A stretch of DNA of 64,000 bases, taken from NCBI RefSeq assembly GCF_000348945.1, contig NZ_AOCK01000002.1:310001-374000 (forward strand), written 5' to 3'. Source of the DNA: Paeniglutamicibacter gangotriensis Lz1y. Lineage in GTDB: Bacteria > Actinomycetota > Actinomycetes > Actinomycetales > Micrococcaceae. Both the position numbers and the translations under genes were made by a program. The notes beneath the pieces are model-generated. The model did not search any database. It was not told where the DNA came from and was given only the letters and a program-made list of their open reading frames with translations. This document shows, piece after piece, positions 50,332 to 56,301 of this stretch (position 1 is its first letter; every line of letters begins with the position of its first letter).

Positions 50332-52392
50332 TCAGTGGGTCAGGGTCCCGCAACCGGAGACTTCGAAGCCCTTGGCCGTGGCCGGGACATCGATAACCAG
50401 CCGTCCTGCGGTGAAATCGTTGGTGATCAGGTTCTTGAAGTCACCGGTGAAGTCGCTGTAGGTCGCCCAGTAACACGAGGATGAGCCCTTGCCGATGTAG
50501 CGCCCGGGCTTGATGTCGATCCCGACTCGGTAGGTGCCATCCTTGGTGATTTTGGAGGCCTTGGCCCCGCTGCTATTTACGGTGGTCCATTTCCCACAAC
50601 CGCTGGTCGTGAAGCCCTTGTCGCCGGAGACGATCCTGACGTAGGTGTTTGCCGTACCGAAGTAGTTGGCCTTGATCTGCTTGAAGCTGCCGCTGAATCC
50701 GCTGGTGCGGGCCCAATAGCAGCCCTTGCCGTTGCCGGTCGCCTTGTAGAGACCTGGATTGACGTCCTTACCCACGCGGTAGGTGCCGTTGTCGGACATG
50801 ACTGTCTTGACCGGGACCGGAATGGAGACGGCGCCGCTGGTGGCGGACTTGCTCTGGTAATTTTTCTTTTTGGCGGTGACCTTGACGCTGATCTTCTTAC
50901 CGTTATCCGACGCGGTGAGCTTGAAAGTGGATCGGGTGGCCTTGGAGATGGGTTTCCCGTTGCGCAGCCACTGGTAGGAATGCGACGTCGGCTTCGGGGA
51001 GTACGAACCGGTGGTGGCCTTCAGCGTACTGCCAGCCTTCTTGGTGCCGGAGACCTTGGGATTGAACATCACCGAGAAGGCGGGCTTGGCGATCTTGACG
51101 CTGTTCGAGTTCACGTTCAGCTTGGAATAGCCGGCACGGGTGAACGACATGCGGACCTGGTACTTTGCACCGACATCCTTGGATGAGAGCTTGTAGCTCT
51201 TTGTTGTCGCCTTGGAGATCTTCTTGCCGTTCTTGTACCACTGGTAGGTGGACTTCGAGGCTGCCGGTGCCTTGACCGAGGCCGAGATGGTGCTGCCGGA
51301 CCGGGCTGTGCCGGAAACCGTTAGCTTCGAACCGGTTTTCAGGATCCCGGCGGTGATCTTGCGTGCGGCCGAGACGCGTGTCGTGGTGGGATGGCCGCTT
51401 CGCTTGGCCGTGACGCGGACCTTGAGCGACTTGTTCAGGTCGGCGGCGGTGGTCGTGTGGCTCGATTTGGTGGCGCCCTTGATGACGGCATTGTTGCGGT
51501 ACCACTGGTAGCCAAACGTCGGAGGCGGTGCCCATTTGCGGGTCGAGACCTTGAGCGAATTGCCCACCCGGGCGGTTCCGGTGATCGTCGGGGTCGGTGC
51601 CGAGGTGAACCGTGCGGCGGCGATGGAACGCTCGACGGAAAATTTCTCGACCGTGGTGACGCCGGTGGCCGTGGCGCGGGTGCGGACCTTGATCTGCCGG
51701 CCCGCATCGGCGGCCACCAGGGTGTAGGTCTGCTTGGTTGCTCCGGGGACCGGGGTACCGTTGCGGTACCACTGGTAGGCGATCGACGCCTTCGGTGCCC
51801 AGGAGCCCGCCGAAGCGGTGAGCTTGTTGCCGGCCGTCGTCGTTCCGGAGAATGTGGGAGCAGGTGCCTTGGTGAACACGTTGGCCTTGACGTAGCCCAG
51901 GTCGAACTCGTCGACCCATGACTTCCCAAGAACGTCATCCATGTGGACGCGCACGACCAAGCGTTTGCCGATGGCCGAGACGGGAACGACGAACCGGCTG
52001 CCACCGACTATATCGGTGCCGAATTCCTCATCCTCCGCCCGCTGCACAGGCTGTTCGACGCCGTTGAGCAGCCATTCGATCTCGCTTGACCATGCTTTGA
52101 TCCAGCCCGCGGCCTCCGGCAGGATGGACATTCCCGCGGTGACGGTACCAGGCTTGGGGTATTCCGCCGGATTAACCTGCTCGGGTGCCTGCTCTGGTTC
52201 TTCTTCGTTGCAGAACTCGCTGGTCCAGCCGTGTTCACAGTCGTAATACGCATCAGTTGGCTGGGCTATGGCCGGCACCGCGGATACGCCCAGCGAGATT
52301 GTAAGCGCGGCGGCCGCCACGAGGCCGAGGACCCGGCGCAACATCGTGTGACGTGAAGTCAGATCCCCCGGACGTGCGAGCGTTTGGTGCAT
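50332..52392 (-). CDS. Secreted repeat protein with Ig-like domains and C-terminal Cys repeats
   Basis: The 686-residue protein has a signal peptide (LRRVLGLVAAAALTISLGVS, cleavage near AIA-Q at 43/44). After a spacer come four repeats of about 85 residues at about 142-480, each with YQWYRNG or YQWLRNG, then a TYTL/TFKL strand and KVRVTA-like ending; a weaker one precedes them (about 66-140). At the C-terminus are two 70-residue repeats (about 534-605 and 617-686) with DGTYRVG, PG.Y, CYWA, SGCG. The Ig-like repeats are common in actinobacterial surface proteins. No LPXTG or membrane anchor is seen, so it is released or bound through the terminal repeats. ATG 52392 follows GGGGGAAGC. Confidence 0.85.
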   Translation of the reverse strand: MHQTLARPGDLTSRHTMLRRVLGLVAAAALTISLGVSAVPAIAQPTDAYYDCEHGWTSEFCNEEEPEQAPEQVNPAEYPKPGTVTAGMSILPEAAGWIKAWSSEIEWLLNGVEQPVQRAEDEEFGTDIVGGSRFVVPVSAIGKRLVVRVHMDDVLGKSWVDEFDLGYVKANVFTKAPAPTFSGTTTAGNKLTASAGSWAPKASIAYQWYRNGTPVPGATKQTYTLVAADAGRQIKVRTRATATGVTTVEKFSVERSIAAARFTSAPTPTITGTARVGNSLKVSTRKWAPPPTFGYQWYRNNAVIKGATKSSHTTTAADLNKSLKVRVTAKRSGHPTTTRVSAARKITAGILKTGSKLTVSGTARSGSTISASVKAPAASKSTYQWYKNGKKISKATTKSYKLSSKDVGAKYQVRMSFTRAGYSKLNVNSNSVKIAKPAFSVMFNPKVSGTKKAGSTLKATTGSYSPKPTSHSYQWLRNGKPISKATRSTFKLTASDNGKKISVKVTAKKKNYQSKSATSGAVSIPVPVKTVMSDNGTYRVGKDVNPGLYKATGNGKGCYWARTSGFSGSFKQIKANYFGTANTYVRIVSGDKGFTTSGCGKWTTVNSSGAKASKITKDGTYRVGIDIKPGRYIGKGSSSCYWATYSDFTGDFKNLITNDFTAGRLVIDVPATAKGFEVSGCGTLTH

Positions 52393-52633
52393 GCTTCCCC
52401 CAGTGAAGTTTTCAAGTGCACCGTTCCATGGATTCTCCCGGAACGTGTGCGAGTTCCCTAAAGAGTATGTGCAAGATCCGATGCCTTGGAGTACTTGACG
52501 TGTCAGCCTCAATTGTTACCGAATCGCCCAGCCAGTGCGGAGATTCAGAACGTTGACCACGCGGTGGCCGAAGCCTTCCAGCAATACGGGTGGTCCATGG
52601 GGTCAATGGGGTCCGTAGTCGGGACAATCCGAC

Positions 52634-54526
52634 TCAGAAGAGCGGGGGTTGTTCGCCGAGCCAGTGGGCGTTGCGCCGCGGGATCTGTTCGGGGTCTTCG
52701 AACTGGGGCAGCACCACCCAGGGCACACCACTCTTCATCACGACCCGGATGTCTCCGTTGTCCACGGCGCGGTGCTCGGAGGTGCAGAACATGCCGAGGT
52801 TGGCCACACTCGTGGCTCCGCCCTCGGACCACGGTTCAATGTGGTGGAATTCGCAGTGTTCGGGCGGGACGGTGCAATGTGGTTTGAGGCAGCCGCGGTC
52901 GCGGGCTCGGATGGCTTGCTTCATGGACTCTGGCGGGTAGCGGCGCTCACGACCGTAGTCCAGGATCTCGCCCTCGCCGCCGAGCACGATCGGGATGCAG
53001 TCGAACTCGGCGAGTCGTTTGCGTACCTCGCTGACCGGAATTTCCAATCCGTGGGCGCTCCACCCCGCACCGCGCGCCATGCCCAGGAGCGTTTCGATGT
53101 TGATGTAGACAAAGAGCTTCGAAATCGGCAGTCCGGTGGCTCCCTTGGTTGACACCCGCGGGGAACGCATCAGATTGAGCAGGGTCTGCAGATGTCTTTG
53201 GGCGGGGGTGGGTTCCTCGAGTCCGGTGCCAAAGCTGGAACCGTTCTCCGTTCCGGGGATTCCGCTGGGCGGTGCGCCCTCATCGTCAAAGGTATCCGCG
53301 TTGGGCGGGCGATCAAACCAGTCCGGTCCTTCAGGGGGTACCGGGAACAAGGAGTCGTGGGCGGCTACGGGGTCGATGGTTGGGCTCGATGCGATATCCG
53401 GGCCGGTGTTGGCCTCTGGATTGACATCAGGATTCTTTGGGGTTGCTGGGGATGCGTTGGGGGAGGGGTCCGTCGTGGCTGCCGCTGCCTCCGGGACGGT
53501 CTCGGCTTCGGTGCCGGTGGTCGGTGAAGCATCGTCGGTTGGGGGAGCCTCCGTGGCGGGCTCGCTGCCGGTATCGGCGGCAGCGGAGGGAGTGCGGGGA
53601 GTAACCGTGGCGGCTTCGGCCATGGCGGCGCGATTGCCGGCAAGGGTGCGGGCGTTGTCGGAGGCGGCGAAGTGCGCCAGGAAGACCTCGGCGTCGATAT
53701 TCAACATGCACGCGCTGAAATACGTGAAGTGCCGGGTGCGTTTGGTGATCGATATTCCGGTCTTGTTGCGGACTTCCGCGGGTGTGGGCGCGGAGTCGAC
53801 GTCGTCGATCTCATCGGAGATCCGGTTGAAGAGTTTCGTGGTGTTTTTTGCGTCTCCGGCTGCAACCGACTCTGCAACGCGCGATTCGACCTGTTCGGTG
53901 AAGTCGGCTGCATCGTCTCGGGCTTCGATACCGGGGCGCAGCTTCTCCAACTTGCGCGCGGCGGCGGCCGTGGGACCGAGCCTGACCTTTCCATCGGCCA
54001 ATTGACCGGCGAGTTGTGGGTAGCGCGGTCCGCGGGGCATCCCGTGGGGATCCGTGCCTGGCAGCAGATCGTCGGCGGCCCGTAAACGCCTGTTGGCCTC
54101 GAAGTAGTCGATCCCCAGCATGCCGGCCAGACAATCTGCGGGGGACTTGAACTGCAGTCGCCCGGTGGGGACCGTGCGGGGGTCCTGCGGCAGCGTCGTC
54201 TGACCGGCTACGAAGGAGGCCGGATCCTCTGCCACGGTGCGCAGGGCGGTGAGGACATCGGCGGGAAGCTCATGGATCAAGGTGGCTCGGGCGAGCTGGG
54301 CGACCTTGAGCTGCGCGATTTCCAGGGCTTGGGCGGCGTGCTCGACGGTGATCGCGGTGAGCACGGCCCGGGTGGGGGAGTTGGTGTGCGTCGAGAGGCG
54401 GGCGACTAGTTCATCGACCTGGTGAAAAGTCTCGATGAGTGCGCGCAGTTCATCGTCCGGGGTGGGTTGATACCTCGTATCGTCGCTGTGGCCAGCGAGG
54501 GTGTTGATGAACGCGTCGGTCTGCAT
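52634..54526 (-). CDS. DUF222/13E12-type HNH endonuclease domain protein
   Basis: This 630-residue protein has an N-terminal DUF222 helical region (VDELVARLSTHTNSPTRAVL; ADCLAGMLGIDYFEANRRLR), a long linker rich in Pro, Thr, Ser and Ala in the middle, and an HNH nuclease domain at about 540-590 (DRGCLKPHCTVPPEHCEFHH, with IEPWSEGGATSVANLGMFC next). The zinc cysteines and the catalytic histidine pair are intact. Such proteins are abundant in actinobacteria and often multi-copy; their role is unproven. The start is ATG 54526 with GAGG upstream. Confidence 0.9.
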   Translation of the reverse strand: MQTDAFINTLAGHSDDTRYQPTPDDELRALIETFHQVDELVARLSTHTNSPTRAVLTAITVEHAAQALEIAQLKVAQLARATLIHELPADVLTALRTVAEDPASFVAGQTTLPQDPRTVPTGRLQFKSPADCLAGMLGIDYFEANRRLRAADDLLPGTDPHGMPRGPRYPQLAGQLADGKVRLGPTAAAARKLEKLRPGIEARDDAADFTEQVESRVAESVAAGDAKNTTKLFNRISDEIDDVDSAPTPAEVRNKTGISITKRTRHFTYFSACMLNIDAEVFLAHFAASDNARTLAGNRAAMAEAATVTPRTPSAAADTGSEPATEAPPTDDASPTTGTEAETVPEAAAATTDPSPNASPATPKNPDVNPEANTGPDIASSPTIDPVAAHDSLFPVPPEGPDWFDRPPNADTFDDEGAPPSGIPGTENGSSFGTGLEEPTPAQRHLQTLLNLMRSPRVSTKGATGLPISKLFVYINIETLLGMARGAGWSAHGLEIPVSEVRKRLAEFDCIPIVLGGEGEILDYGRERRYPPESMKQAIRARDRGCLKPHCTVPPEHCEFHHIEPWSEGGATSVANLGMFCTSEHRAVDNGDIRVVMKSGVPWVVLPQFEDPEQIPRRNAHWLGEQPPLF

Positions 54527-54749
54527 GCCTCAAGTGTGCACGCGCCCGGAGTTCGGGCGGGGTTCGCTGCGCGGGGTTGTGGACAACCCCCGCAAGGCTC
54601 CCGCGCGCAGGGGCTGCCCAACAGCCTTCCGGCTCGCGTGCGTGCGTACGCGTGAGTGCATGCGCGCGAGCGAGGGAGCCGGGATATGGGCATTTACGCA
54701 CCGGGACGCCTGAGCCCGAGGCGTTAGCTGACGGGGGACGATGTTGGAT

Positions 54750-54869
54750 GTCGGGACCGGTACCGTGACAGGTTCGCGTGGGTTGCCTGCCCGAACGTTT
54801 TGCCACCTTCGGCCTGCGGTGCGCAACGTCGGCGGGTAGAGCCACAGTGGCATCTCGAGCGGTCCCGAC
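54750..54869 (-). ncRNA. Structured element, copy 1 (candidate RNA)
   Basis: On the minus strand the element is bounded by GTCGGGACC (54869-54861) and GGTCCCGAC (54758-54750), a perfect closing helix. Inside are a GCCA/TGGC hairpin, a second hairpin with GCGCACC and GGTGGC arms within CCGACGTT/AACGTTCGG, and a conserved AGGCAACC...CGAACCTGTC hairpin followed by CGGTACCGG. Copy 2 at 55536-55658 shares these blocks with changes mostly in loops. It lies after the FMN-protein gene and 223 bases before the HNH gene. Confidence 0.5.
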
Positions 54870-54981
54870 ACCCCTGACGCTACTCCTGCGGCCGCGCCTG
54901 TCCATGGTTCCGGCACAGGATTTCGGGCGTTTTGGTGGAATCCATCCGCGTGGGAGGTCCATGCCGCGCCCCGGGACCTGG

Positions 54982-55434
54982 CTACCCGTGGCGCATGTGC
55001 TTCCACCAGGTCAGGGGGTCGGCCACCTTGAAGCGCCGACCGGTCATCGAGGTCGGCACGATGCGGACAAATTGGTCCTTGGGGCCCGATTCCCAGGGGA
55101 AGAGCATGAGGTTGAAGGAGTCGAGGGTTTCCTCGATGCCGCCGAAGAGTTCGGCCTCGCCCTGGATCATCACGGACCAAGCGACGCCGGTCTCTTGGTT
55201 CACCCCGTCGGCCTGGAAGGCGACCCGGGGCTGGGCTCGCAGGGTGGCCAGTTTGGTCCCTTCCCCGGTGCGGAAGACCACCGTGCCGTGGTCGATGGTG
55301 AAATTGACCGGGAAAATCTGCGGCATGTCATTGCTGCTGACGGCCAAGTGGCCCACAGACACGGCACGCAGCAGTTCCAGGCACTGGTGGGATTCAAGTT
55401 TCTCGACGTCCGTGTGGGTCTGGTTCTCGTCCAT
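54982..55434 (-). CDS. Pyridoxamine 5'-phosphate oxidase-like FMN-binding protein
   Basis: This 150-residue protein has the split-barrel flavin fold: HQCLELLRAVSVGHLAVSSN, then MPQIFPVNFTIDHGTVVFRT and EGTKLATLRAQPRVAFQADG, the usual order of the PPOX family. It ends with MTGRRFKV. Members are nitroreductase-, haem- or F420-linked; the exact role is not clear. ATG 55434 begins MDENQTHTDVEKL; there is no clear ribosome-binding site. One copy of the structured element lies 101 bases upstream and the other 112 bases downstream of the gene. Confidence 0.85.
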   Translation of the reverse strand: MDENQTHTDVEKLESHQCLELLRAVSVGHLAVSSNDMPQIFPVNFTIDHGTVVFRTGEGTKLATLRAQPRVAFQADGVNQETGVAWSVMIQGEAELFGGIEETLDSFNLMLFPWESGPKDQFVRIVPTSMTGRRFKVADPLTWWKHMRHG

Positions 55435-55535
55435 GACTTGAGCGTACTGCTGCGGAGCGGGGGTTGCCAGAGTAGCGCGTGATCCAAGAGGAACGACCGT
55501 GGACGCGAGGGTTGGCTGGTGGGAAGAAAGCTGAC

Positions 55536-55658
55536 GTCGGGGCCGATACCGAGACAGGTTTTCGCAGGTTGCCTCCGTGAACGCCGTGCCACCGATCGTG
55601 CTTGGTGGCGGGATATTTCGGGCCGTAGAGCTGCAGTGTCTTCCTGTAGGGTCCCGAC
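55536..55658 (-). ncRNA. Structured element, copy 2 (candidate RNA)
   Basis: On the minus strand the element runs from GTCGGGACC (55658-55650 as GGTCCCGAC on plus) to GGCCCCGAC (55544-55536). It has the same layout as copy 1: closing helix, ACACTG..GCTCTAC block, a hairpin with perfect GCCACC/GGTGGC arms, AGGCAACC...CGAA.ACCTGTC and CGGTA.CGG. It ends 101 bases before the FMN-protein start, so a leader or regulatory RNA is plausible; a decayed repeat element cannot be ruled out. Confidence 0.5.
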
Positions 55659-55997: not shown

Positions 55998-56301
55998 CTC
56001 GTTGTTCCTGCTCCGGTTGTCCGAAAGGTTTGGTCGCATGGATCGCCTAAGCGAAGGTGCTGATCTACACTGGTGCGCTCTCACCACGATGCCACCAAGT
56101 CTCTGGTTGGCCAAGGACCGGAACATCGCACCGGGTTTGGCTGTTGGTGCCGTGGCGATCGTGGGCTGGGGAATGTACTGGGTCGCCGGGCCCGGAAATC
56201 AGCTTTTGGTCAAAACTAGGGGCCGCAGCCTGCCGGAAATCTGCTCGGCGGGCTGCGGCCCCTGGTTGTTAGTTCATCCAGTGCTGGACGTGGGAATCGG
56301 G
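55998..56301. other. Intergenic, with the RND-gene terminator
   Basis: No gene is supported here. The right part holds the terminator at 56219-56262; the left part should hold the promoter of the HicB-like gene. A plus-strand frame through the region has a hydrophobic patch (GLAVGAVAIVGWGMYWVAG) but no start signal, so I do not call it. Confidence 0.45.
56219..56262 (-). terminator. Terminator of the RND transporter gene
   Basis: GGGGCCGCAGCCTGCCG (56219-56235) pairs with CGGCGGGCTGCGGCCCC (56246-56262) with a single G-U type mismatch. On the minus strand it is followed by CTAGTTTTG. Confidence 0.8.

What the first reader, a model, noticed from the sequence alone, without database searches (positions are those of the whole stretch)
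54750..55658. Two diverged copies of one structured 120-nt element around an FMN-protein gene
Seen: on the minus strand 54750-54869 and 55536-55658 share an ordered set of blocks (GTCGGGACC; ACTG..GCTCTAC; GGTGGCA; AGGCAACC; CGAA.ACCTGTC; CGGTA.CGG; CCCGAC). The ends close as a 9-bp helix in both, perfect in copy 1. Inner helices hold although their loops differ (GCGCACC/GGTGGC in one, GCCACC/GGTGGC in the other). Sequence changes with kept pairing point to selection on RNA structure. Copy 2 sits 101 bases before the FMN-protein gene, copy 1 before the HNH gene. I could not match it to a riboswitch class that I know. It could be a cis-regulatory RNA, a small RNA, or a mobile repeat with GTCGGGACC ends.
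Basis: partly seen in the sequence, partly recalled or inferred. Interest (0 to 1): 0.82.

Follow-up and report, generated by a model that had tools for sequence, protein, structure and literature searches.

The report
Orphaned insertion-sequence leader hairpin
Two diverged copies of a 120-base RNA-like hairpin beside an FMN-protein gene are the left-over leader of an IS110-type jumping element that has lost its transposase, and related species have kept the hairpin, which suggests that the host may now use it.

Summary
The two copies are real: 85 of 123 aligned positions identical, z = 12 against shuffles. Homologues sit beside the same FMN gene, before or after it, in 8 of the 15 genomes held for the genus (Paeniglutamicibacter); only the window genome has both.

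In other Micrococcaceae the same hairpin starts about 22 bases inside complete IS110-family insertion sequences, directly before the transposase gene, with its Shine-Dalgarno in the 3' arm. Beside the FMN gene no transposase remains; about 37 bases related to its start survive after copy 1.

In the solo copies 13 of 37 pairs have two-sided compensatory changes, against 1 to 3 when the helix is slid. Their identity is at or above that of four-fold sites of the FMN gene in 16 of 16 genome pairs. Two carriers show no IS110 transposase at E <= 1e-5.

Best reading: the structured leader of a dead IS110 element, kept by the host, most likely as a small RNA. An IS200 leader RNA is a published precedent (PMC12594629, abstract). 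Transcription, partner and target are untested.

The parts
54750..54869 (+). Copy 1: solo IS110 leader hairpin, after the FMN gene and 223 bases before the HNH gene start (RNA strand inferred as +)
   Evidence: matches models R1, R2, R3 (it is one of the sequences they were built from); IS homology
55536..55658 (+). Copy 2: solo IS110 leader hairpin, 101 bases before the FMN gene start (RNA strand inferred as +)
   Evidence: as for copy 1
54870..54906 (+). Probable relic of the start of the transposase gene after copy 1
   Evidence: 19 of 37 bases as in the best of five IS copies, shuffle P 0.001; the same stretch after copy 2 is not significant (14 of 37, P 0.33)
54982..55434 (-). FMN-type gene (pyridoxamine-phosphate-oxidase-like, 150 aa), neighbour, not part of the element
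   Evidence: PF12900 E 6.9e-25
55441..55446 (-). TACGCT, likely -10 box of a leaderless FMN-gene transcript
   Evidence: Same word six bases before ATG in 10 of 11 loci; reading it as a promoter is inference, and the sigma-70 scan found none

Best explanation
Each copy is the 5' leader hairpin of an IS110-family insertion sequence that lost its transposase long ago. In complete elements the hairpin forms the start of the transposase message, with part of the Shine-Dalgarno in its closing stem, and probably holds translation down, as reported for ISPpu9 of the same family. Beside the FMN gene of Paeniglutamicibacter only the hairpin was kept, under selection for its fold and for a nearly invariant internal-loop motif (GGGUUGCC opposite GGUAGAGCC). 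Its most likely present role is a small structured RNA read from the + strand, a host-adopted transposon leader. Shown here: homology to the IS leader, absence of transposase and of the left-end word, conservation, compensatory changes. Inferred: transcription, strand and use by the host.
For: Same hairpin in four near-identical 1584-1586-bp IS copies and before IS110 transposase homology at 58 of 76 classified places; transposase families PF01548, PF02371 and NF033542, 216.8 bits against a cut-off of 140. Transposase-start relic in L073, L072 and W1 (22, 21, 19 of 37; P <= 0.001). Two-sided changes in 13 of 37 pairs of solos against 1-3 slid, 12 of 23 with IS copies added against 1-4 slid. 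Element identity at or above FMN four-fold sites in 16 of 16 pairs. The FMN-locus copies form one clade (support 97/89). Kept in G002 and G007, where PF01548 has no hit at E <= 1e-5. Precedents: ISPpu9 leader (PMC8450116, abstract) and IS200 5'tnpA RNA (PMC12594629, abstract).
Against: No transcript is known; no promoter or terminator was found at the copies. The element is missing from 7 of 15 genus genomes. Within the close group before the gene the margin over four-fold sites is small (0.90-0.95 against 0.82-0.91), and the flank that holds the FMN promoter is more conserved than the element in 2 of 16 pairs. Template switching between palindrome arms can also produce paired changes. Shine-Dalgarno masking by the 5' arm is supported by folding in only 5 of 8 IS leaders.
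Confidence: 0.55

Rival explanations
1. Fossil: the hairpins are remnants of dead IS110 elements without present function; pairing is kept passively by template switching between the arms and the copies are simply not yet worn away.
For: Six other tnp-less copies look like ordinary IS fragments; the transposase relic is decayed; element missing from 7 of 15 genus genomes.
Against: Against the window genome the element is 0.67-0.73 identical with 3-4 gaps, while FMN four-fold sites are 0.51-0.62 and flanks 0.44-0.56; two-sided changes in 13 of 37 pairs.
Confidence: 0.22
2. Bidirectional terminator or insulator: the strong hairpin ends or separates transcription between neighbouring genes, on either strand.
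For: All copies lie between genes; in G009 and G014 between two convergent genes; strong folds.
Against: No T run was called at the copies, and copy 2 lies beyond a strong terminator-like hairpin at 56217-56264; related loci show an alternative hairpin after the RND gene. A terminator does not explain the conserved internal-loop motif.
Confidence: 0.1
3. Cis-regulatory leader (riboswitch or attenuator) of the FMN or HNH gene.
For: Copy 2 is 101 bases before the FMN gene, copy 1 lies 223 bases before the HNH gene.
Against: Fold and wobble pairs favour the other strand; FMN gene looks leaderless; in G007, G009 and G014 the element is after the FMN gene, and L014 and L015 show no HNH match; no Rfam match.
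Confidence: 0.05
4. Non-autonomous mobile repeat moved in trans by an IS110 transposase.
For: IS origin; two copies in the window genome; one more tnp-less copy at another locus in another genus (L047/L065, G157).
Against: The IS left-end word is absent from all 9 FMN-locus copies, though this word was also missed in 36 of 58 tnp-linked copies, so the test is weak. One locus only in the genus; copies 69% identical; two carriers without an IS110 transposase hit. That L065 belongs with the other solos is unsure: support 97, but 83/77 and AU p 0.364 for placing it with nearby IS.
Confidence: 0.05

Closest known systems
5' untranslated hairpin of the ISPpu9 transposase mRNA, IS110 family (PMC8450116; abstract and section list seen)
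   Same: Structured transposase leader of an IS110-family element that can involve the ribosome-binding site.
   Different: ISPpu9 is an intact element of Pseudomonas with two small RNAs; here the leader stands alone without transposase. No sequence comparison with ISPpu9 was made.
IS200 5'tnpA small RNA of Salmonella (PMC12594629; abstract and section list seen)
   Same: Structured RNA from the 5' end of a transposase transcript, described by its authors as transposon domestication through a small RNA.
   Different: Other IS family, and processed from a present tnpA transcript; here the transposase gene is gone and no RNA or target has been shown.
IS110 bridge RNA / seekRNA (PMC11208160, one section and passages; PMC11187229, one section and passages)
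   Same: Structured RNA in a non-coding end of an IS110-family element.
   Different: The hairpin shows no match to IS ends or target flanks beyond chance; in these IS the likelier bridge RNA is the conserved 3' non-coding end.

Membership tests
Leader hairpin of this IS110 subgroup | Sequence and structure homology to hairpins before IS110 transposases | tested here: met
   R1, built from same-genus copies beside the FMN gene, finds tnp-linked copies in other genera at up to E 5.7e-10 (linkage); alignment of 9 solo and 10 IS copies
Leader hairpin of this IS110 subgroup | Transposase gene directly downstream | tested here: not met
   No transposase homology (tblastn E <= 1e-3, 1.4 kb) after the 9 FMN-locus copies; only a relic of about 37 bases, significant in 3 of 8 distinct FMN-locus copies tested
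Bridge RNA / seekRNA | Guide stretches matching IS ends and target | tested here: not met
   In 8 IS copies (three of them near-identical) the longest matches of the hairpin to ends and flanks are 4-7 nt, shuffle P 0.22 or more in all 32 tests
Bridge RNA / seekRNA | Binding by the recombinase | not testable with these tools
   Needs a binding assay
Non-autonomous IS110 element | Both IS ends present | tested here: inconclusive
   Left-end word absent in 9 of 9 FMN-locus copies, but also missed in 36 of 58 tnp-linked copies; the right end was not searched for
Known Rfam family | Match to a covariance model | tested here: not met
   No match over the copies up to E 10; none up to E 1 in L055, L062, L066
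Cis-regulatory leader of the FMN gene | Lies in the gene's transcript, sense strand, upstream | tested here: not met
   After the gene in G007, G009, G014; probable leaderless start; plus strand favoured. Transcript starts were not measured
Domesticated transposon small RNA | Conserved without the transposase | tested here: met
   8 of 15 genus genomes; conservation and covariation; no PF01548 hit in G002 and G007
Domesticated transposon small RNA | Discrete transcript that acts on host genes | not testable with these tools

The most novel reading that the evidence does not exclude
A new host RNA family born from the transposase leader of an IS110 element: transposase and IS ends are lost, but the folded leader is kept by selection as a regulatory RNA acting in trans, also in species where no IS110 transposase is now detected.
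Probability: 0.35. Interest if true: 0.75.

Novelty: new variant of a known kind. Interest (0 to 1): 0.57.

Why it matters
IS leaders are usually taken to matter only to the IS. A leader kept without its transposase would show that the RNA part alone can be adopted, as argued for IS200, here in another IS family and as a free-standing element. It also exposes a conserved leader structure, absent from the Rfam copy used here, in a sizeable group of Micrococcaceae IS110 elements that carry a second conserved block at their 3' end. That makes it directly testable how an RNA-guided transposase controls its own synthesis.

Tried and rejected
Known RNA families: no match over the copies. Ms1/6S-like RNA: considered because the fold is one long hairpin and PMC9130861 (passages seen) lists Arthrobacter; dropped because IS-leader homology explains the sequence; not tested with a model. 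Bridge RNA: no guide matches in the hairpin. For the 3' end most single-element tests were not significant either: right-end match P 0.02, 0.03 and 0.07 in three of eight rows and 0.30 or more in the rest, left-end match P 0.22-0.80; in the 0.07 row and in L059 the best match was not the ATATCAG word. That the bridge RNA lies there rests on conservation across elements and is inference. Pairing between hairpin and 3'-end block: seen by eye, not kept between elements, dropped. Hits L159 and L160 look like coding sequence and were discarded by eye. Promoter scan at the copies: none. Copy 1 against plasmids: one match of 38 bases, taken as chance. A larger set of solos was sought with R3: 28 of 395 family genomes and 3 of 18 in the genus of G157; the listed places gave no further copy that I recognised as solo, but not all were classified. 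Novelty searches: (open-licence PMC only); no listed title or abstract describes a solo IS110 leader, which says nothing beyond those listings.

Full report
Observation. Copies 1 (54750-54869) and 2 (55536-55658) are as described. They share 85 of 123 aligned positions, z = 12.1 against 2000 dinucleotide shuffles. No Rfam family matches over either copy up to E 10.

Distribution. Among 59 genomes (the window's and relatives), long blastn matches to copy 1 occur in seven genomes besides the window's, all of the same genus: G002, G003, G006, G007, G009, G010, G014. Seven further matches of 19-34 bases were treated as chance. Copy 2 gives long matches in four of the seven. Named loci identify the genus as Paeniglutamicibacter. 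With model R2, built partly from these copies, 10 of 15 genus genomes have a match at E <= 1. Eight of them carry copies beside the FMN gene, 9 copies in all; G012 and G013 have tnp-linked copies only; G006 and G010 have both kinds (four of the five tnp-type G006 places were not classified). Of 80 FMN-type loci, L069-L073 carry the element. L074, L075 and L076, with FMN proteins 79-86% identical to the window's, show none; five weak matches elsewhere (E 1.1 or more) were taken as chance. The copy lies before the FMN gene in G002, G003, G006 and G010 and after it in G007, G009 and G014; the window genome has both.

Origin. Family searches give matches at E <= 0.01 in 17 (R1), 48 (R2) and 28 (R3) of 395 genomes, an order search in 7 of 396 (R2). 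These large searches score only 8 or 9 candidates per genome, so the counts are lower bounds. I classified 76 of the 90 matches, leaving out 4 repeats of a place or of an identical copy and 10 opposite-strand or secondary matches. At 58 of 76 there is IS110 transposase homology within 1.4 kb downstream on the model strand. At 18 there is none: the 9 FMN-locus copies, one copy in another genus (L047/L065, G157), six that look like truncated IS, and two apparent coding-sequence hits. Four near-identical copies in G069 and G017 set the IS limits: 1584-1586 bp; model match starting 22 bases after the left end; Shine-Dalgarno GGGAGG in the 3' arm and ATG just after it; a transposase of about 380 residues from that ATG; about 300 nt of 3' non-coding DNA. 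The protein matches PF01548 and PF02371 and NF033542 above its cut-off.

Loss of the transposase. None of the 9 FMN-locus copies has transposase homology downstream. They also lack the left-end word TAGAC[AG]NTATGA, but that word was missed in 36 of 58 tnp-linked copies too. After the hairpin 22, 21 and 19 of 37 bases match the transposase start in L073, L072 and W1 (P below 0.0005, 0.0005, 0.001). L065 is borderline (17 of 37, P 0.01, one of nine tests). W2 and the four copies before the gene are not significant (P 0.07-0.33). For these last, descent from an IS rests on hairpin homology and on the clade of FMN-locus copies (97/89; 94; 65 distinct sequences). Whether L065 belongs to that clade is unsure (97; 83/77; AU p 0.364 for placing it with nearby IS).

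Structure. Solos (A4, 8 distinct rows): 93.1% of cells paired, 13 of 37 pairs with changes on both sides, covariation score 0.227 against 0.104 in shuffles; 1-3 such pairs when the 3' partner is slid. Nine solos with ten IS copies (A7): 94.5% paired, 12 of 23 pairs with two-sided changes against 1-4 slid; one measure, further pair types, did not exceed shuffles (180 of 500). Cautions: relatedness inflates the shuffle control, the structures come from the same alignments, and template switching in palindromes can mimic covariation. Strand: + folds better in 8 of 9 solos and 7 of 10 IS copies, mean z -2.88 against -2.03 and -4.12 against -3.11. G-U cells on + against on -: 41 to 3 (A4), 27 to 1 (A7 solos), 33 to 9 (A7 IS copies). 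In the IS, + is the transposase strand.

Selection. Element identity is at or above FMN four-fold-site identity in 16 of 16 genome pairs (one pair nearly identical throughout). It exceeds the left flank in 15 of 16 (one tie) and the other flank in 14 of 16. In the two exceptions, both among the close relatives with the copy before the gene, that flank holds the FMN promoter. Against the window: element 0.67-0.73, four-fold sites 0.51-0.62, flanks 0.44-0.56. L072 against L073: 0.85, 0.62, flanks 0.70 and 0.45. Within the close group: 0.90-0.95 against 0.82-0.91. PF01548 has no hit at E <= 1e-5 in G002, G007 and G011; the first two carry the solo. The window genome has four PF01548 hits, none with an R2 match other than the two solos.

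What it does. An FMN leader is unlikely: TACGCT six bases before the ATG in 10 of 11 loci suggests a leaderless transcript starting downstream of the element. Copy 2 is not needed as the RND terminator, since another hairpin follows that gene. In the IS, the leader may restrain transposase translation, as reported for ISPpu9 (PMC8450116, abstract). By folding, taking away the first 45 bases raised Shine-Dalgarno accessibility in 5 of 8 leaders, left it nearly unchanged in 2 and lowered it in 1, and the ATG was mostly open in 7 of 8 full leaders, so support is partial. For the solo the best inference is an adopted small RNA like IS200 5'tnpA (PMC12594629, abstract). Transcript, partner and target are not shown.

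Bridge RNA. Published work places bridge RNAs (seekRNAs) of IS110-group elements mostly in the left end; some elements have two long non-coding ends or a downstream one (PMC11208160, PMC11187229; one section each and passages). Here the 3' end holds a conserved block with TAGAC- and ATATCAG-like stretches resembling the IS ends, while the 5' hairpin shows no such match. I do not call the hairpin a bridge RNA, and I call the 3' block only a candidate.

Noticed in passing
L055:13317-13619 and the matching 3' ends in L059, L060, L062, L063, L064: About 300 nt of conserved 3' non-coding DNA in these IS110 elements, with stretches like both IS ends: a candidate bridge/seek RNA in the right end of elements that also have a structured left end.
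   Followed up: partly
L054 (G010:C19:56000-75000): Stretch crowded with insertion sequences: several IS110-type transposases, one broken copy of the element studied here, and other transposase-like ORFs.
   Followed up: no
L055 (G069:C1), around 6-15 kb of the locus: The IS lies twice in opposite orientation inside repeated DNA of about 3.2 kb, with further near-identical repeats, suggesting a recent inverted duplication.
   Followed up: no
window about 54626-54670; also beside the hairpins of L069, L070, L071, L012: Alternating GC/AC-rich tracts close to the hairpins, seen by eye; no test made.
   Followed up: no
window 52634-54526: HNH protein of 630 residues (PF01844) with a weak match to the HNH part of the IscB model, far below its cut-off. 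A homologue sits at the same place in G007 (L013), not in L014 or L015.
   Followed up: no
window 50332-52512: Protein of 726 residues with repeated Ig-like matches (PF13895, PF13927), perhaps secreted.
   Followed up: no
window 56217-56264: Very strong terminator-like hairpin (20 pairs) after the RND efflux gene.
   Followed up: no
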